The notes under the pieces: model-generated
Seen by the model: the letters and a program-made list of their open reading frames with translations, nothing else
Databases searched by the model: none
Told to the model about the DNA's origin: nothing
In this document: positions 1-8,362 of the stretch, piece by piece
Layout of the letters: every line of letters starts with the position of its first letter
Numbering within the stretch: the stretch's first letter is position 1
Program-made: the position numbers and the translations under genes
Source of the DNA: Deltaproteobacteria bacterium
GTDB lineage: Bacteria > Myxococcota_A > Bradymonadia > REDH01
Assembly (NCBI GenBank): GCA_007693585.1
Contig: REDH01000110.1
Coordinates: forward strand, 1-47,085
DNA: 47,085 bases
Direction of reading: 5' to 3'

Positions 1-95
1 GGTGGTCGTGGTCGTGGTCGTGGTCGTGCTGGTGGTGTCCGTGTCCGTGTCCGTGTCCGTGTCCGTGTCCATGACCATGGTCATGGTCATGGTCG
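1..95. repeat. Hexanucleotide tandem repeats encoding His-Asp and Gly-His runs
   Basis: Two adjacent hexamer arrays lie in the last visible codons of the membrane protein. Positions 35-70 hold six perfect copies of GTGTCC, read on the minus strand as Gly-His pairs. Positions 1-29 hold about four copies of a GTGGTC-type hexamer, read as His-Asp pairs. Positions 71-95 carry related GGTCAT/GACCAT units. Because the unit is six bases, gain or loss of copies would keep the reading frame. Confidence 0.9.
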
Positions 96-2188
96 TCGAA
101 CGGACCATGGCTGTGCACTGGCGGGGGGGCTGGGCGGTCCCCGGTACGCATCCAGGTCTGCATCGCCGCGACGCGCTCTGCGAGGATGTTGAGCATGCTC
201 GGGGACTGAGCGTCCTCAAGTGCGCGTTCGTAGTAGTGAAGGGCCCGAGTGGGGTCGTCGAGGAAGTCGTCATGGAGCTGTCCGAGCCGATGATGGATCT
301 CGGCGCGATCTCGGCGGGGCAGGTCGCTGATGGGGAGTCCCGAGAGCAACGCAGCGGCTTGCTCGTGATTGCCGCGCATGATCTCGATGTCGGCGAGCAG
401 CCGAACGGAGCGGTGATGCTCGGGGTCGATGCGCGCGGCGTGTTGCAGAATGTCGGCGGCCCGACCGAGTTGTGCATGGAGCGCGTCGAGTCCCTGAGGC
501 AGCCGGCGCACGAGGATGTCAGCGAGCTTGTAGCGCGGTTCGATCAGGTGGGGCCGCATTCGCACGGCCTCCCGAAAACGGTCGACCGAAGCGGGTTGCT
601 GGTCCTCGCCGGACATGCTGCTGAGCAGGGCAGCGTTGTGGAGGCTGTGGAATCGGTACTGATGGCGATGGGCGCGTTCGTAGGCCTCACTGGCCTGCTC
701 GATCAGGGCGTTGCCGAGGAAGACGTCGCCGCGCGCGGCATGGTAGCCCCAGAGCCCGGCCTGGACCTGGGTGACGAGGACGACTACGGCGACGAACGCA
801 GCGGGTACCGCCCCGGCGAGCACGCGTTCGAGTTGGTTGGGCTGGGGCAGTTCCGCCGGCCCGCCGTCAGGGGGGGACGAGGAGGCGAGCTGCGCGAGCA
901 GGAGCGCGAGCAGTGCCATGGTTGGGGCGTGGAGAAGCCCCTGGCTGGTCAGCAGCAGTCCTGCGATGACCACCACGCCGAAGAGTCCGCCTGCGGCCTG
1001 CAGTGCTGTGCTGCTCGCAGCGGATTCATCCCCCTCGCGAACGTGGGGGCGGCCAGCGAATGCGATGCGCCGGAGAAGAACGACAAGGAGAGCGAGCAGG
1101 GCGAGCATCGGAACGATGCCTCCCTCGACGAGCACTTCTCCGAGCGCCGAGGAGCCCCTGACATCTCGCATGGCCTGTTGTCCGAAGGCCTCGCGTCTCT
1201 GATCGGCGGGTGGGAGGAACGCCATGACCTCTGCGCTGAAGGTCCCTGGTCCCGTGCCGAGCGGCAGGGCTTCGAGCGCCGCATGGCGGGTGGCCGTGGC
1301 CACGCGTGATGTGAACTCGTCGTCCTGTGAACCGAAATCGTGTGCCGCAATCGCCATGAATCGCATGGTGGATGCGGGCGGAGCCGGGAGTTCGGCGGGG
1401 TCGGGTGAAGCGATGGTCTGGAGGAGCGAGGCCAGGATGACGGGTGCGAGGGCGAGGAGGCCGAAGCGGCTCAGCGTGGTTCCTCGCCAACCGCGCACGA
1501 GGAGGAAGGCGCCGCCCGCCAGTGCGGCGACACCGGCCACGACGATCGGGGTCTCGTGTCCGGCGAGGCCGAGAGCGACCGCGCTCAGGACGATTCCGGC
1601 AGCGGTGAGGCGGCGGAGACGCCGGGAGAGCAGCGGGAAGGCGAGGACAAGGCTGGCGAGAAGCAGCAGCGCCACGGCGGCCGCGATGGTCGGGTGATCG
1701 GTGAAGCCGCGCAGCCCGTCCTGCGGGTTGGTCGAGAACGGGATGGGCTGGGGGAAGGCGACTCCTCTGGCCTGGAGGAGCATCGTTCCCGAAAGGGCGA
1801 CCGCGAGCGCGGTGCCCCCGATGGCTGCGAGGCGCGGCCAGGGGATGTCCCGGGAGACATGGGCCCACAGGAGGAACGGCAGCGGGATCGCGAGCAGCGC
1901 GACCCGGTCCATGGCTTCGGGACCGCTGCCGGTGAGCAGGGCGCCGAGCAGGAACCAGGCGGGCAGAACACTCCAGAGGAGGGCGATGCTCGGCACCCGG
2001 CGGGTTCGTGAGACGGGGCCACGCGTGATCCGAACGCACCATGCGAGGAGCGCCAGTGCGGCGAGAACGGAGCCGATGGCGAGCTGTGCCACGCCGTACC
2101 TCGGGAACCCGGAAAACGCCGCCAGCGTGGAGCCGAGAAGGATCATGCCGGCAGCGATGAGGGCGACGGGTTGGGGAGACTGCGGCAT
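1..2188 (-). CDS. O-antigen-ligase-like (Wzy_C type) polytopic membrane protein with TPR region and His-rich tail, partial
   Basis: This minus-strand reading frame starts at ATG 2188 and is still open at the window edge, so the C-terminus is missing; about 729 residues are visible. The first 450 or so residues form roughly ten hydrophobic segments. A periplasmic stretch contains LPLGTGPGTFSAEV, which resembles the GxGxGxF signature of the Wzy_C/O-antigen ligase family. A soluble part follows with TPR-like helical pairs (for example EQASEAYERAHRHQYR and DDPTRALHYYERALED). The visible end is a tail of alternating His-Asp and His-Gly pairs. The family joins or polymerises surface glycans in the inner membrane; the substrate cannot be told here. 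The start is the first ATG before the hydrophobic segments and has only a weak ribosome site. C-ending codons dominate, as in a real gene on this strand. Confidence 0.82.
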   Translation of the reverse strand, partial: MPQSPQPVALIAAGMILLGSTLAAFSGFPRYGVAQLAIGSVLAALALLAWCVRITRGPVSRTRRVPSIALLWSVLPAWFLLGALLTGSGPEAMDRVALLAIPLPFLLWAHVSRDIPWPRLAAIGGTALAVALSGTMLLQARGVAFPQPIPFSTNPQDGLRGFTDHPTIAAAVALLLLASLVLAFPLLSRRLRRLTAAGIVLSAVALGLAGHETPIVVAGVAALAGGAFLLVRGWRGTTLSRFGLLALAPVILASLLQTIASPDPAELPAPPASTMRFMAIAAHDFGSQDDEFTSRVATATRHAALEALPLGTGPGTFSAEVMAFLPPADQRREAFGQQAMRDVRGSSALGEVLVEGGIVPMLALLALLVVLLRRIAFAGRPHVREGDESAASSTALQAAGGLFGVVVIAGLLLTSQGLLHAPTMALLALLLAQLASSSPPDGGPAELPQPNQLERVLAGAVPAAFVAVVVLVTQVQAGLWGYHAARGDVFLGNALIEQASEAYERAHRHQYRFHSLHNAALLSSMSGEDQQPASVDRFREAVRMRPHLIEPRYKLADILVRRLPQGLDALHAQLGRAADILQHAARIDPEHHRSVRLLADIEIMRGNHEQAAALLSGLPISDLPRRDRAEIHHRLGQLHDDFLDDPTRALHYYERALEDAQSPSMLNILAERVAAMQTWMRTGDRPAPPPVHSHGPFDDHDHDHGHGHGHGHGHGHGHHQHDHDHDHDH

Positions 2189-2730
2189 GAGGGCTCGGCA
2201 TGGGGAGGGGGAGGGACGGCAGAGTGGCCGTCGCGAGGCAGGGATCTGCTTCGGATCCCTGGCTTGTCAAGCGGGGTTGCCGTTCCGGTTGCGCAGCGGC
2301 ATGGAGGGCGTCACCGCTCGGCGGTCGCCGGCAGGGCCGTCGCAGGGCCCGCACTTCAGTCCACCATGACGACCATCGGTGACCCGAATCAGCTGCAAGT
2401 GCCTAGCCGAATAGACCCACAGCGATGGGAATCCTGCCGGAAGCGGGTTCATTGGCGACTCCGTGTTCACTCTGGGGTCTCCCGGGGCTGTCGCAAGGTC
2501 GCCACCGAACCCCTCCCGATGGTGGAGTCACCGTAGTGGACCACAGTGATTCAGGCAGTTGTGGCCAACGCGAACCGATGAACCGCGCAACGTCGGGTTG
2601 AGCCCCGGACGTTGCGATCGCCCTGTGAGGTCCTCGGCTGCATCGGTTTCGCGGCTTGCGGGGGGGATTCGAGAGCCGTACCGTAGCTGCGGAGTGCCGG
2701 AACCGACGTGACGAGAGCGAGGGAAGCAGC
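2189..2730. other. Divergent intergenic region, no gene seen
   Basis: This 542-base stretch separates the minus-strand membrane protein from the plus-strand signal-peptidase-like gene. The reading frames across it are Arg/Pro/Ser-rich and look like noise. I see no tRNA, strong hairpin or convincing promoter pair. It presumably holds both promoters because the flanking genes are divergent. Confidence 0.5.
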
Positions 2731-3714
2731 GTGAATTCGGAGCAAGAGGAGTTCGAGCGGTCGTACCTGGGCGAGACCGCCCCACGCAGCCCGTGGATGG
2801 CGGCCGGGCTGTCCCTCCTGTCACCGGGGCTGGGCTGGTTGTACGTCGGGCGACTGCCGGAGGCGCTCCTGCTCAACGGTGCGCTGGCTCTGGTGATCGT
2901 GGTCGCGTTCGTGCTCTGGAACATGCTGGAGTTCTTCCCGTTGCTGCCGTTCGGCCTTCTGGCGATAGGGCTCGCCGCGCTTGTGCTGATGACCCTGCTC
3001 GACGTCATGCGAACGGCCTGGTTGCGGGGCGACCGCTTTGTTCTCCGGGAGTACAACCATCCGCTCGCTTACGTGCTCTTCGCGGCAGGCACCTGGTTTC
3101 TGCCCATCGTGATCGTGTCCGGATGGACGTTCACGACGCAGTGGATGGTGGTGGAGGTGCAGGATGACGCGATGTACCCGTCGGTTCTGGAGGGTGAGCG
3201 CCTGCTGGTCCATCGCGGCCATGCCGAACTCGAGCGGGGAGACATGGTCGTGGTCGATCTGCCTCCTCAGGGTCGACGAATCGTCCGGGTCGTCGCGCTG
3301 GGCGGTGACGAGGTGGCCTTCTCCGACGACACGCTTTTCGTGAACGATCGCCCGTTTCCGAGGGCCACGCTCGATGAGGTGGGGCGACGGGAGCTGGCGG
3401 CCCTGACCGGGGACCTGCGCGAGGACATGGACTACTTCGTCGAACGCGACTCGAGGGTGGCGTGGCCGAGCGTCAGCCCCAGAGTGGCACACATGGCGGA
3501 GCTGGAGGCCACGCGACTGGCGGACGACGAGTTGTTCGTGCTGCACGATCATCGCGGCCGAACGAGCGACTCCCGCGACCTCGGTCCCGTGCCGCGTGAG
3601 ACCGTGATCGGTCGACCCCTCTACGTGTGGTCGACGCCGGACGGCGGCGGCAGCGACGCACACCTGTCCCGCCGAGTCGGCCGGAGAATTCAGGCTGCCC
3701 CAATCGCACCGTAG
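2731..3714 (+). CDS. Signal peptidase I (S26)-like membrane protein lacking the catalytic dyad
   Basis: The protein is 327 residues from GTG 2731, which has a purine-rich site (GAGGGAAG) just upstream. The N-terminal third (about residues 22-140) has several hydrophobic segments, including SPGLGWLYVGR. The rest aligns with the conserved boxes of leader peptidase. The Ser-Met-x-Pro box reads DDAMYPSVLEGERLLV, so the nucleophile position is Ala147. The Lys-Arg box reads RRIVRVVALGGDEV, so the general-base lysine is Val185. The last box is kept as HDHRGRTSDSRDLGPVPRETVIGR (split here: HDHRGRTSDSRD, then LGPVPRETVIGR). The fold therefore seems intact while both catalytic residues are replaced. 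A peptidase role is unlikely; a binding or regulatory role is an inference. The catalytic-residue calls rest on alignment by eye. Confidence 0.85.
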   Translation: MNSEQEEFERSYLGETAPRSPWMAAGLSLLSPGLGWLYVGRLPEALLLNGALALVIVVAFVLWNMLEFFPLLPFGLLAIGLAALVLMTLLDVMRTAWLRGDRFVLREYNHPLAYVLFAAGTWFLPIVIVSGWTFTTQWMVVEVQDDAMYPSVLEGERLLVHRGHAELERGDMVVVDLPPQGRRIVRVVALGGDEVAFSDDTLFVNDRPFPRATLDEVGRRELAALTGDLREDMDYFVERDSRVAWPSVSPRVAHMAELEATRLADDELFVLHDHRGRTSDSRDLGPVPRETVIGRPLYVWSTPDGGGSDAHLSRRVGRRIQAAPIAP

Positions 3715-3836: not shown

Positions 3837-5222
3837 ATGGCCCGATCCTTCCTTCAGACGCTGGTGGTGCGTGGAGTGTTGTCGCCCGTTGACGCGGAAC
3901 GGGTGGCGCATCTGGAGCAGGTTCGTCCGTCCCTGCCCCTCCTCGCCCTCTTCGCGGAAGGACGGCTGGAGGAGGATGCACTCGTGCGGGCTCTCGCAGA
4001 GCGGTGCGACCTGTCGGTCGTGGCCGGGGAAGAGGTGACCGCGCTCCAGGCGTCTGTGCTCGAGCCCTTCCATGCGTCCTGGCTCCACCGCTGGGGTGTC
4101 CTGCCGTTGCGGCGCTCGCGGCGCGGCGACCTGCTGCTGGGCATGGTCGATCCCGCGCTCCCGGGAGGCGCGGAAGCCGTCGCTGCCGTGAGCGGCCTGA
4201 GCGTTGCGCCCCTCGTGCTGCCGCCCGACCTCATGGATCAGGCCATGCGAGCGTTCGGTGTGGGCAGCTGGTCTCTGCGAAACTCTGCGCTGCTCGACCC
4301 CTCCATGGCATGTGACGCCAGAGGACTGCGCGTTCTGCCCCCGCGTGGATCCGGAGGACCGGCGACCTCCGAGTTGCCGGATGTGCCGTCCGCCGGGGTG
4401 CGCTCGGAGCGGGCGACCGAAGGTGCCACGCTGGACGAGCGCCCGGGAGGGGACGAGCGCCCGGGAGGATTCTCTACCCCGTCCAGGCGGCGCACCGATG
4501 CCCGGCCCGCGCAGACCGGCGATCAGTTCGCGGTGGCTCCGGTGACCGGGGTCGAACACCTCGGCGGTGCGGGAGCACCGGTTCATGACACCGGAGAGGT
4601 ACACCTTCAGGGCCCGGGTCCGCTTCCAGCCACGCAGCCCGCCAGCCCGGGATCACCCTCGCCATCGAAGGCCGCTGCGGTACTGCAACTCGCCTACCGA
4701 TCGCTTGGTGCGGAAGCGCGGCACGTTGCTGACCGCGAAGTCCAGGCGATCCTGCGACTGGCCGAACGCTCGCTCGCTGCCGTGGACGGACGCGATGCGC
4801 TCGTGGACGAGCTGGTTGACGCCCTCGGAGTTCTCTTTCCGAACGTGCTCTTTCTCTGGACGCGCGGCGCCGAAGTGCAGGTGGGCGCCGCAAGCACAAG
4901 AACCGTCGACTCGGCGAGGCTGTTGCGCCGTGAGTTCACGGTGCCTCCAGGCTCACCCTGGCAACCGCTGGTGGAGACCGAGGAACTCCTGACGGGCCTC
5001 TTCCTCCCGGGAGATCCGGTTCGCGACCTCCTGGGCGGGGATGCCGTGATCCCGCTGCTGGGCTGCGCGGTCCGACTCGGACCGCGGACGGTCGGCGTCC
5101 TCGTGATCGAGGGACTCGAGGATGGCAAGGTGCCCATTCTGGGCGAAGGGCTCGTGCAGCTCCAGACAGCGCTTTCCGCCAGTCTTCGGCGACTCATCCT
5201 CTCACGGCGCGAGCAGGTCTGA
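3837..5222 (+). CDS. GspE N-terminal (MshEN)-like domain protein with C-terminal GAF-like region
   Basis: The protein is 461 residues from ATG 3837. Residues 1-140 (SFLQTLVVRGVLSPVDAERV, then EDALVRALAERCDLSVV) resemble the N-terminal module of type II secretion/type IV pilus ATPases, which in some members binds cyclic di-GMP. No ATPase domain follows. A low-complexity linker of about 120 residues includes a tandem DERPGG repeat encoded by an 18-base duplication near 4435-4470. The final 180 residues (from AVLQLAYRSLGAEARHVADR) look like a GAF-type sensor fold. The protein is probably cytoplasmic and regulatory. It ends 6 bases before the convergent lipoprotein gene. Domain names are by pattern only. 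Confidence 0.7.
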   Translation: MARSFLQTLVVRGVLSPVDAERVAHLEQVRPSLPLLALFAEGRLEEDALVRALAERCDLSVVAGEEVTALQASVLEPFHASWLHRWGVLPLRRSRRGDLLLGMVDPALPGGAEAVAAVSGLSVAPLVLPPDLMDQAMRAFGVGSWSLRNSALLDPSMACDARGLRVLPPRGSGGPATSELPDVPSAGVRSERATEGATLDERPGGDERPGGFSTPSRRRTDARPAQTGDQFAVAPVTGVEHLGGAGAPVHDTGEVHLQGPGPLPATQPASPGSPSPSKAAAVLQLAYRSLGAEARHVADREVQAILRLAERSLAAVDGRDALVDELVDALGVLFPNVLFLWTRGAEVQVGAASTRTVDSARLLRREFTVPPGSPWQPLVETEELLTGLFLPGDPVRDLLGGDAVIPLLGCAVRLGPRTVGVLVIEGLEDGKVPILGEGLVQLQTALSASLRRLILSRREQV

Positions 5223-5228
5223 CCGGCG

Positions 5229-6386
5229 TCAGTCCTGCGTGCTGACGCTCCGGTTGTAGCACATGCGGATGGAGCCATCGCTTTCGATCACGGCGAAGAT
5301 GTGATCGTTGCCGGCGGCCTCGCGCTCGCCGAGCCCCGCGTCGCTGAACTCGGTGGAGAAGACGTGCGCCCGGGGCACGTAGTCCTGAAGGCGGAACACG
5401 GTTCCGACAGAGGGGTGCTGGACGCCCGAAAAGGACCGCCGTCCGGCCGGGATGACCGCGAAGCTGCGGGACGGGCTGGTGCGGGCAAAGACCCGGTTCA
5501 GGAAGACGTTCGTGCTGCTTGTCCGACTGCCGTGGTGCCCGACCTTGAGGATGTGCGCGTCCAGAGCCCCAAGGGCGTTGGCGATTTCGGACTCGACCTC
5601 CCAGTGGGCATCCCCCATGAACAGCACGCGACGACCTGCGTACTGCATCATGAGCACGATCGAGGAGTTGTTGACCACGTCTCCGGTGTGCCAGTCGACC
5701 CGGTCCGTCCGGCTGTTCAGGATCTGCGTGGGCAGCTCGGCACCGAAGCGATCCGTCGAGGCATAGCGTTCCGGGAAGAACTCGGGAATGGCGGGCCGAT
5801 AGAGTCTGCCACCGTTCCGGCGTGTCTCCACATCCGCCCGGCCGAGAAAGTCCGCATAGCTGGGACTGTCGCTGGGAAAACCCGGGTCGAGGACGTTGCG
5901 CACCGTGAAGACGTCGAACACGCGCCCGAACCCTCCGTAGTGATCGGAGTGGGCGTGCGTGGCGATGGCGAAGTCGATCGTCTCCCCGGGCTGCAGCCCC
6001 ATGGCCTGCATGTAGCGGACGACATGTGCGCCGCCATCCGTCCGGTTCTCGAAGCCCAGGTCGCCGGCGTCGATGAGGATGTTGTATCCCTCCGCGACCC
6101 CATTGCCCGGCACGCCGTCATCGGGGGTCTGAATCCAGATCGCGTCTCCCTGGCCGACGTCGATGAAGTGGATTCGGAGATCCATCGGCGAGGTCCGGAG
6201 ATCCTGAGGGGTGCAGTCACGCCCCCTCCCGACCGGCCCTTCGAGGACCTCACGGTCGTCGGGGAGGGTGGGCTCGGCAAAGCTGTCGCAGGCCACCAGA
6301 GCGAGGAGCCCGACGAGCCAGACACTCAATGCCGCGACTCGCTGGAATGGCTGCATCCGTGCTGCTTCGTTGGGGCGCCGGATCAT
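5229..6386 (-). CDS. ComEC-type metallo-beta-lactamase-fold lipoprotein
   Basis: The protein is 385 residues. Start ATG 6386 overlaps the TGA of the upstream protease gene as ATGA, which is why I chose it over the ATG at 6356. A signal peptide ends in a lipobox (LLALVAC), so the mature protein should be a lipoprotein. The motif HFIDVGQGDAIWI and the metal site THAHSDHYGG, followed by GDAHWEVE and VGHHGSRTSS, are those of the ComEC/Rec2 metallo-hydrolase domain. It lacks ComEC's membrane channel, so it is a stand-alone secreted-side hydrolase, probably acting on nucleic acid or another phosphodiester. Its coupling to a subtilisin-like protease suggests joint extracellular function. The substrate is unknown. 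Confidence 0.85.
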   Translation of the reverse strand: MIRRPNEAARMQPFQRVAALSVWLVGLLALVACDSFAEPTLPDDREVLEGPVGRGRDCTPQDLRTSPMDLRIHFIDVGQGDAIWIQTPDDGVPGNGVAEGYNILIDAGDLGFENRTDGGAHVVRYMQAMGLQPGETIDFAIATHAHSDHYGGFGRVFDVFTVRNVLDPGFPSDSPSYADFLGRADVETRRNGGRLYRPAIPEFFPERYASTDRFGAELPTQILNSRTDRVDWHTGDVVNNSSIVLMMQYAGRRVLFMGDAHWEVESEIANALGALDAHILKVGHHGSRTSSTNVFLNRVFARTSPSRSFAVIPAGRRSFSGVQHPSVGTVFRLQDYVPRAHVFSTEFSDAGLGEREAAGNDHIFAVIESDGSIRMCYNRSVSTQD

Positions 6387-8260
6387 ACGTCGCGGCGAGA
6401 GGCGATGGCCGTGGCCGTCAGTCCGAGGACGCCGTTGAGCGCGAGCCACAGCCGATCGGCGATGCCACCGAAACCGGGGATGCCGGTGACGTCATGGAGC
6501 GGGATGAGCGCCTCCGAGACGAGGAAGATGCTGACCCCGGCCATCGTTCCCAGGAGGAGACCACTGCGGACGGGGCCGCGTGTGCTTCCGAAGAGCCCGT
6601 ACAGGAGGAGGACGGGGAGGGCGCTGAGCAGCAGGAGGTTCGTGGTGATCCAAGGGGTTCCGCCCAGGTTGTGCGCCCAGTGGAGCACCCCGGTCTCGAG
6701 CGCGGCAGGCGTCGGCGGTTGTATGCCGAGGGCGATCATCAGCAGGGCAGGGCCCGCGAGTCCCGTGGCCATCACCAGGCTGGAGGCGGTGAAGGCGACC
6801 GCGGAGAGGGGTCGAAGTCCCTGCCGGCCTCGGGCAAGCCCGAGCGCGAGGAGGGCGGCGAACAGGGCCAGAGGGATGCGCGGTGCGTGCCAGCTCGAGA
6901 GCGCTGCCGTGGTGGCGCGCCCGGCGTCCACGAGCCCGGCACCGTACCGGTCCTGCTCGAAGACGGGAACATCGCGCGAGGCGCTCGAGAGGAGGAGCTC
7001 TTCGATTCGATCCGGGTGGGTGACGCCCTGGGACCGGATGAGTGCGGCGACCGCCGCCACGTGCGGCGCGGCCATGGACGTGCCCATGTAGAGCGCGAAC
7101 TCGTGGTCGGACGGGTTGCCGCGGGCAAGGGTCTCCTGAAGGATTCCGTCCGGCCGGCCATCGCCGACCTGGTCGACCCGCGTGTTGCCCCCCGGCGCGG
7201 CGATGTCGATGTACTGCCCATAGTTGGAGTAGAAGGTGGTGGTCCGGTCGTACTGGGTCGCCGCCACCGCGATGACGCCGCGGTAGGCCGCCGGGAACGA
7301 GGGCATGGACCAGCCGTTGTTCCCGGCCGCCGCGATCACCACCACGCCCTTTCGCCGGGCATGAGCCACGGCATCCGCCATGACGCGACTCGGCAGCGGG
7401 CCTCCAAGGCTCATGTTGATGATGTGCGCCCCGTTGTCGGCGGCGAAGCGGATCGCGTCGGCGATGTCCCCCGTGGCGCCCCGTCCCTGTTCATCGAGGA
7501 CGCGAATGGGCATGATGGCGGCGCCTGGAGCAAGTCCCGCCACGCCGTAATCGTTGCCGGTCGTCTGGGCGATGGTGCCCGCAACATGGGTCCCGTGGCC
7601 GTGCAGGTCGAACGGCTCCGCATTCCGGTCGACGAAGTCGTAGCCGGGAACGAATCGGGTCCCCTCGAAGTCTCGGATGCGACGCACGCCGAGGGCGGGG
7701 TCATCCGCGTAGGCGACGCCGGTGTCGATCACGGCGACGATGACTCCGTCGCCGCGCGCACGCTGCCACGCGTCCTCCGCGTTCACCTGGCGGAAGTTCC
7801 ACTGGAATGGATAGAGCGGATCGTTCGGGCCGGCGTCCGACGGCGCTGCAGTCTGCACGCGAGGTGAGGTCAGGGCACCGGCCGGTTCGAGCTCGACGGT
7901 CATCTCGGGCTCCACCGTGCGCACCCTTGGATCCCCCGCGAGACGGTCCGCAAGGGCCATCGCCTCCTCCACCGGGAGCTCGACCCGATAGAGGCCCCAG
8001 CCCTCGGCGTGGGCGCTGGTCGCCCTTGCCTCACGAGGCAGCAAAGCCCGCACTGCTTCTCGCTCCTCGGGGCGCAGGTCATCCCGAACGTCGATGAGCA
8101 CGGCCACGCGCTCGCCATCGGGCCAGGCCGTCGCGAACGTGAGATCCTCGACTCCCCCCGCCCGTTCGCCGGGGGCGAGCTGGAAGAGAAGGGCCATCGA
8201 CGCGACGACTCCGGCGAGCAGCCAGGTCAGGGGACGATTCCTGCGGGATGGAGTCAGCAT
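6383..8260 (-). CDS. Subtilisin-like (S8) serine protease with C-terminal membrane segments
   Basis: The protein is 625 residues from ATG 8260 (MLTPSRRNRP), where an N-terminal hydrophobic signal (LTWLLAGVVASMALLF) begins at once. A propeptide-like region (about 50-130) is followed by the S8 domain with Asp179 in AVIDTGVAY, His222 in HGHGTHVAGT, the oxyanion Asn near 314 (AAGNNGW) and Ser395 in GTSMAAPH. After residue 460 come about five hydrophobic segments, so the protease domain is probably displayed outside and tethered to the membrane. That tail is unusual for S8 enzymes. It ends in an ATGA overlap with the metallo-hydrolase lipoprotein. A duplicated 43-bp repeat lies just upstream. Confidence 0.93.
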   Translation of the reverse strand: MLTPSRRNRPLTWLLAGVVASMALLFQLAPGERAGGVEDLTFATAWPDGERVAVLIDVRDDLRPEEREAVRALLPREARATSAHAEGWGLYRVELPVEEAMALADRLAGDPRVRTVEPEMTVELEPAGALTSPRVQTAAPSDAGPNDPLYPFQWNFRQVNAEDAWQRARGDGVIVAVIDTGVAYADDPALGVRRIRDFEGTRFVPGYDFVDRNAEPFDLHGHGTHVAGTIAQTTGNDYGVAGLAPGAAIMPIRVLDEQGRGATGDIADAIRFAADNGAHIINMSLGGPLPSRVMADAVAHARRKGVVVIAAAGNNGWSMPSFPAAYRGVIAVAATQYDRTTTFYSNYGQYIDIAAPGGNTRVDQVGDGRPDGILQETLARGNPSDHEFALYMGTSMAAPHVAAVAALIRSQGVTHPDRIEELLLSSASRDVPVFEQDRYGAGLVDAGRATTAALSSWHAPRIPLALFAALLALGLARGRQGLRPLSAVAFTASSLVMATGLAGPALLMIALGIQPPTPAALETGVLHWAHNLGGTPWITTNLLLLSALPVLLLYGLFGSTRGPVRSGLLLGTMAGVSIFLVSEALIPLHDVTGIPGFGGIADRLWLALNGVLGLTATAIASRRDV

Positions 8261-8362
8261 GAGGTCCGGAGGGAAGCAGGGCGGGCGGTCGCCGGACTCG
8301 GGGCGACACGTGCGATGCGCGCGCACGCTGGGCACGCGCGCCTCACTCGAGGGCTAGCATGC

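What the first reader, a model, noticed from the sequence alone, without database searches (positions are those of the whole stretch)
2731..3714. Signal peptidase I fold with both catalytic residues replaced
The Ser of the Ser-Met-x-Pro box is Ala147 and the Lys of the Lys-Arg box is Val185, while the surrounding boxes are well kept and the gene has an intact frame and ribosome site. Both dyad positions lost together, with the fold conserved, points to a retired peptidase now used for binding or regulation. Such pseudo-peptidases of family S26 are little described.
Basis: partly seen in the sequence, partly recalled or inferred. Interest (0 to 1): 0.72.

Follow-up and report, generated by a model that had tools for sequence, protein, structure and literature searches.

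The report
Conserved dead signal-peptidase family in Myxococcota
This gene makes a protein with the shape of the enzyme that trims export tags off secreted proteins but with its cutting machinery removed, and it belongs to a large, old family of such dead copies that most relatives keep beside a working enzyme, often next to a sugar-polymer-ligase-like gene, so it probably holds or guides something at the membrane rather than cutting it.

Summary
Window 2731-3714 (+) encodes a 327-aa S26 signal-peptidase homologue (PF10502, 93 bits) with Ala147 and Val185 at the Ser/Lys dyad positions; the AlphaFold model (pLDDT 89.6) matches E. coli LepB best. The genome has a separate LepB with an intact dyad (contig C95). 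The loss is not peculiar to this gene: by my count 48 of 58 relatives (Bradymonadales-type Myxococcota) carry a dyad-less homologue of this clade. Of 45 aligned, none has the Lys and only 9 keep the Ser; the dyad's supporting residues (Pro87, Gly272, Ser278 of E. coli LepB) have decayed too, while framework residues stay 45/45 and a new signature (G-x-P) is 45/45. Congeneric dN/dS is 0.09-0.34. In three bacterial families the gene lies head-to-head with a Wzy/O-antigen-ligase-like TPR membrane protein; in two it is followed by two ABC half-exporters. Most likely it is a pseudo-signal-peptidase used as a membrane-anchored binding scaffold for an envelope-assembly machine, working like streptococcal SipA but not its orthologue. 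Inactivity is strongly supported by sequence, not assayed; scaffold role and partner are inference. Pseudo-S26 proteins as such are known (SipA, SpsA).

The parts
2731..3714 (+). dyad-less S26 signal-peptidase homologue, 327 aa
   Evidence: AlphaFold model and Foldseek
2719..2726 (+). GAGGGAAG, plausible ribosome-binding site
   Evidence: read from the sequence; not tested
2764..3141 (+). N-terminal membrane module (YxGETxPR, PGLGxxYxGR, about 3 predicted membrane helices, residues 12-137), clade-typical, DUF6677/DUF5683-like
3142..3633 (+). signal-peptidase beta domain (residues 138-301)
3169..3171 (+). codon 147 (GCG, Ala) at the catalytic Ser position
3283..3285 (+). codon 185 (GTC, Val) at the catalytic Lys position
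3610..3618 (+). G294-x-P296, signature of the main dyad-less clade (Ala at this position in 36/40 active rows)
2..2188 (-). divergent neighbour: Wzy/O-antigen-ligase-like multi-TM protein with C-terminal TPRs and His-rich tail, cut by the contig end

Best explanation
The protein is a signal peptidase I homologue that has lost catalysis (shown by sequence and model, not assayed). It sits in the inner membrane by an N-terminal module of about three helices and projects the SPase beta domain into the periplasm (inferred from the model and LepB topology). The groove region still folds, but nothing there can attack a peptide bond. It most likely works as a membrane-anchored binding scaffold: the retired SPase domain holds a protein partner or exported substrate near an envelope-assembly machine whose other parts are the divergently transcribed Wzy/O-antigen-ligase-like TPR protein and, in related families, two ABC half-exporters. 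In mode this resembles SipA, which lost its dyad but is essential for pilus polymerisation.
For: Dyad replaced. No Lys at the base site in 45/45 clade rows; supporting positions P87, G272, S278 decayed together while P93, G128, R146, D273, R275 are 45/45. New fixed residues, P296 45/45 and D161 37/45, show a constraint different from LepB's. dN/dS 0.09-0.34 in congeneric pairs. Intact LepB elsewhere in the genome and in the relatives. Fold: pLDDT 89.6, best PDB match E. coli LepB E=1.6e-10, SipA TM-target 0.78. Divergent Wzy/TPR neighbour in all six family-1 genomes and most family-5 and three family-7 loci; f1 and f5/f7 versions are homologous (hhalign probability 100, E=1.3e-50); ABC pair downstream in f5/f7. 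SipA precedent: PMC4049620.
Against: No binding partner was shown. The Wzy/TPR adjacency is missing in f2, f3, f4 and f6, which still keep the pseudo-peptidase, so the role cannot depend on that neighbour everywhere. Groove-lining positions are only partly kept (F84 equivalent is V/T/E, Y143 equivalent R/A), so binding of ordinary signal peptides is doubtful. In the window's own family the ligase-like neighbour itself lacks the ligase His, and no ABC pair follows the gene.
Confidence: 0.5

Rival explanations
1. It is a dedicated escort for exported pilins or surface proteins (SipA mode proper), with the glycan genes neighbours only by history.
For: SipA precedent; groups f2, f3, f4 and f6 keep the protein without the Wzy neighbour.
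Against: No pilin or sortase genes were found near it in the loci examined.
Confidence: 0.22
2. It regulates the active LepB: the dead paralogue pairs with LepB or competes for its preproteins (decoy or adaptor).
For: Dead paralogues are known to regulate active ones (e.g. prozyme, PMC5201418, listed); both kinds are present in most genomes.
Against: Not seen next to lepB in the loci examined; linked instead to Wzy/TPR and ABC genes. Evolves much faster than LepB (dN/dS 0.13-0.19 against 0.01-0.03 in the same genus) and has a changed groove.
Confidence: 0.2
3. It is still a peptidase that uses other catalytic residues.
For: Nine of 45 clade rows keep the Ser; E238, D273 and R275 are conserved.
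Against: No Ser or Lys is conserved across the S26 domain of the clade; the conserved polar residues are nearly all shared with the LepB framework; G272 and S278, needed around the Lys, are lost.
Confidence: 0.04
4. It is a non-functional relic on the way to loss.
For: Divergence is high, and the window copy also has H272 and H274 in place of G and N.
Against: Open frames throughout the relatives, dN/dS well below 1, framework residues fixed, a new clade signature. Selection was measured in relatives, not on this copy, which has no near neighbour.
Confidence: 0.04

Closest known systems
Type I signal peptidase LepB / TIGR02227 (S26A), e.g. E. coli LepB 1B12
   Same: Fold; boxes around M-x-P, G-D, V-x-R, D-x-R, DSR; C-terminal RIG motif
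   Different: Both catalytic residues and the P87, S88, G272, S278 equivalents lost; different N-terminal membrane module; GxP instead of GxA
SipA of Streptococcus pyogenes pilus islands (PDB 4N31, 4K8W)
   Same: SPase fold with Ser and Lys replaced (Asp48, Gly85) and the Gly272 equivalent replaced (PMC4049620); found by profile (E=5.9e-13) and by fold (TM-target 0.78)
   Different: SipA has one membrane helix, is Gram-positive and lies in sortase-pilus islands; here a multi-helix module, Gram-negative, next to Wzy/TPR and ABC genes; no sign of orthology
SpsA of Staphylococcus aureus
   Same: Dead SPase paralogue beside an active one; lacks both residues (PMC12445088)
   Different: Gram-positive; next to spsB (own knowledge); no N-terminal module of this kind
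DUF6677 / DUF5683 membrane domains
   Same: The N-terminal PGLGxxYxGR region gives weak matches in relatives
   Different: The window protein itself does not match them; their function is unknown

Membership tests
Type I signal peptidase (active enzyme, S26A) | S26 fold | tested here: met
   PF10502 93 bits, TIGR02227 82 bits; Foldseek to LepB
Type I signal peptidase (active enzyme, S26A) | catalytic Ser | tested here: not met
   Ala147
Type I signal peptidase (active enzyme, S26A) | catalytic Lys | tested here: not met
   Val185; none of 45 clade rows has Lys
Type I signal peptidase (active enzyme, S26A) | cleaves signal peptides | not testable with these tools
   no assay
Pseudo-S26 proteins (SipA/SpsA kind) | fold kept, dyad lost, active paralogue in the same genome | tested here: met
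SipA pilus-assembly factor | encoded in a sortase-pilus gene cluster | tested here: not met
   no sortase or Gram-positive pilin among the neighbours examined
SipA pilus-assembly factor | needed for pilin polymerisation | not testable with these tools
   no assay
TraF conjugative S26 peptidase | TIGR02771 above its cut-off | tested here: not met
   35.3 bits against a cut-off of 100.25

The most novel reading that the evidence does not exclude
A clade-wide pseudo-signal-peptidase has become a stable component of a Wzy/O-antigen-ligase-like TPR plus ABC-exporter envelope-glycan machine in Bradymonadales-type Myxococcota, recruiting an exported protein through the dead protease groove (a protein-recognition subunit for glycan attachment or polymerisation).
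Probability: 0.25. Interest if true: 0.72.

Novelty: new variant of a known kind. Interest (0 to 1): 0.5.

Why it matters
Dead signal peptidases were known from a few Gram-positive cases. Here is a large Gram-negative family, spread over a whole class, with its own signature, clear selective constraint and a conserved gene neighbourhood. It gives a natural set of more than 50 sequences that show what a signal peptidase keeps when catalysis is no longer needed, and it shows that automatic 'signal peptidase I' labels (PF10502, TIGR02227) are wrong for these genes. It also points to an uncharacterised envelope system that can be tested by gene deletion in cultured relatives.

Tried and rejected
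The broad alignment could not seed the genome-contig scan; a six-sequence subset could, and gave organism names. Paper searches found no earlier description of these proteins. The model of the Wzy-like neighbour was too poor in its membrane part (pLDDT 61) and was not searched against structures. No RNA family in the first 8 kb. A shifted Ser/Lys pair was looked for and not found. A single origin of the loss is suggested by the class-level tree (active and dyad-less rows split by one branch, 97/85) but left open by the phylum-level tree, where dyad-less rows form several groups around the active one; the root is not inferred, and a Ser/His pair (L165, L169) lies inside the active group.

Full report
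What is there. Window 2731-3714 (+) is an intact gene of 327 codons plus stop (GTG start). Residues 121-298 match Peptidase_S26 (93 bits, cut-off 22.9) and TIGR02227 signal peptidase I (82 bits, cut-off 47). The catalytic Ser column holds Ala147 and the catalytic Lys column Val185. The AlphaFold model built on 31 relatives is confident (mean pLDDT 89.6, pTM 0.83), and its best solved matches are E. coli LepB structures (E 1.6e-10), followed by SpsB and SipA.

Not the only leader peptidase. The genome (4.97 Mb, 97.7% complete) has one other S26 protein, on contig C95, 401 aa, with SMEP, IKR and GDNR intact.

Not one odd gene. Searching 58 relatives gave two kinds of S26 protein in most genomes. 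In the class-level set 57 sequences lack the dyad and 38 have it, and a maximum-likelihood tree separates them by a single branch (97/85; 98% of bootstrap trees). By my count, 48 of 58 genomes have a member of the main dyad-less clade. Sharing of a contig with a named record and taxonomy place family f5 in Lujinxingiaceae, Bradymonadales, treated in recent work as class Bradymonadia of Myxococcota (PMC11509652); the window's family f1 is in the same class. Wider in the phylum, further dyad-less relatives occur in groups f16, f40 and f36. The phylum-level tree leaves the number of losses open.

How dead. In 45 main-clade rows the Lys position is L15, G11, A10, S4, T2, V1, I1 and one R, never K. 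The Ser position is A18, S9, T6, N4 and others. Positions that serve the dyad in E. coli LepB decay with it: Pro87 (40/40 in active rows) is largely gone, Gly272 (where a side chain would clash with the Lys, PMC4049620) is kept in 10/45, Ser278 in 5/45. Framework positions Pro93, Gly128, Arg146, Asp273 and Arg275 are 45/45. A new residue, Pro296 in G-x-P, is 45/45 against Ala in 36/40 active enzymes; Asp161 is 37/45 against Asn in most active ones. dN/dS within genera is 0.09-0.34, against 0.01-0.03 for LepB of one of the same genera. Together this is a maintained pseudoenzyme, not a decaying gene. That nine rows keep Ser while none keeps Lys suggests, but does not prove, that the Lys went first.

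N-terminal module. Residues 12-137 carry YxGETxPR and PGLGxxYxGR and about three membrane helices. Some relatives match DUF6677 weakly, and a similar module stands in a 511-aa protein of other relatives (DUF5683, 22.5 bits, below cut-off). Some active S26 proteins of other Myxococcota align over the module too, so it may predate the loss.

Neighbourhood. The gene on the other side of the shared upstream region (window 2-2188, minus strand, cut by the contig end) is a multi-TM protein with TPRs. Its homologues in f5/f7 match Wzy_C O-antigen ligase (4 of 15 members; the L106 copy at 9.7e-8). Profile comparison of the f1 and f5/f7 versions gives probability 100 and E 1.3e-50 over 626 columns. The head-to-head pair is found in all six f1 genomes, in most f5 loci and in three f7 loci; in f5 and f7 two ABC half-exporters follow the pseudo-peptidase. 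The full-length Wzy-like family was not found in the f2, f3 and f6 genomes searched (only TPR matches), and in f4 it lies on another contig. In the window the downstream gene is instead an MshEN-domain protein.

How it most likely works. Shown: loss of the dyad and its support, kept fold (model), selection in relatives, neighbourhood. Inferred: a membrane-anchored binding scaffold for an envelope-assembly machine. Precedent for the mode: SipA, which has no peptidase activity and yet is essential for pilus polymerisation (PMC4049620). Against a simple substrate-groove story, groove-lining positions are only partly kept. Against a Wzy-only partner, several groups keep the protein without that neighbour.

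Place among known things. It is a member of the S26 fold family, fails the membership test for active type I signal peptidase, and is of the same kind as SipA and SpsA (PMC12445088) without being an orthologue of either as far as can be seen. It is a new, large Gram-negative variant of a known kind.

Noticed in passing
L002 1444-2646 - (G000 contig C95), also L094, L095: The active LepB of this bacterial family carries an insertion of very roughly 75-100 residues between the Ser and Lys boxes that looks like a type II secretion pseudopilin G C-terminal domain (DAWGTPFGW...GPDRVFGTTDDI; T2SSG 18.4 bits, below the cut-off of 21).
   Followed up: partly
window 2-2188 -: The Wzy/O-antigen-ligase-like neighbour lacks, in all f1 genomes looked at, the HN/HS His kept in nearly all f5/f7 homologues; it also ends in a His/Asp/Gly-rich tail (HDHDHGHGHG).
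   Followed up: partly
L165 4954-6273 -, L169 5006-5869 -: S26 proteins with the Ser kept but His at the Lys position (FVHRVVAVAG), grouped with active enzymes in the tree; a possible Ser-His dyad.
   Followed up: no
L075, L076, L081, L090, L097, L099: A second dyad-less S26 clade with Arg at the Lys position and Cys at the Gly272 position (LCDNR).
   Followed up: partly
L079, L091, L092, L093, L101 (f3), L074 (f4): A third dyad-less S26 clade with Leu (Val in L074) at the Lys position, so that some genomes hold two different dead S26 proteins.
   Followed up: partly
window 3837-5219 +: A protein with an MshEN domain (N-terminal domain of type II secretion/type IV pilus ATPases) but no ATPase domain found, just downstream.
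   Followed up: no
window 5232-6449 - and 6386-8335 -: A metallo-beta-lactamase-fold protein and a subtilase; a similar subtilase is also near the pseudo-peptidase in G002 (L104 9317-11191 -).
   Followed up: no
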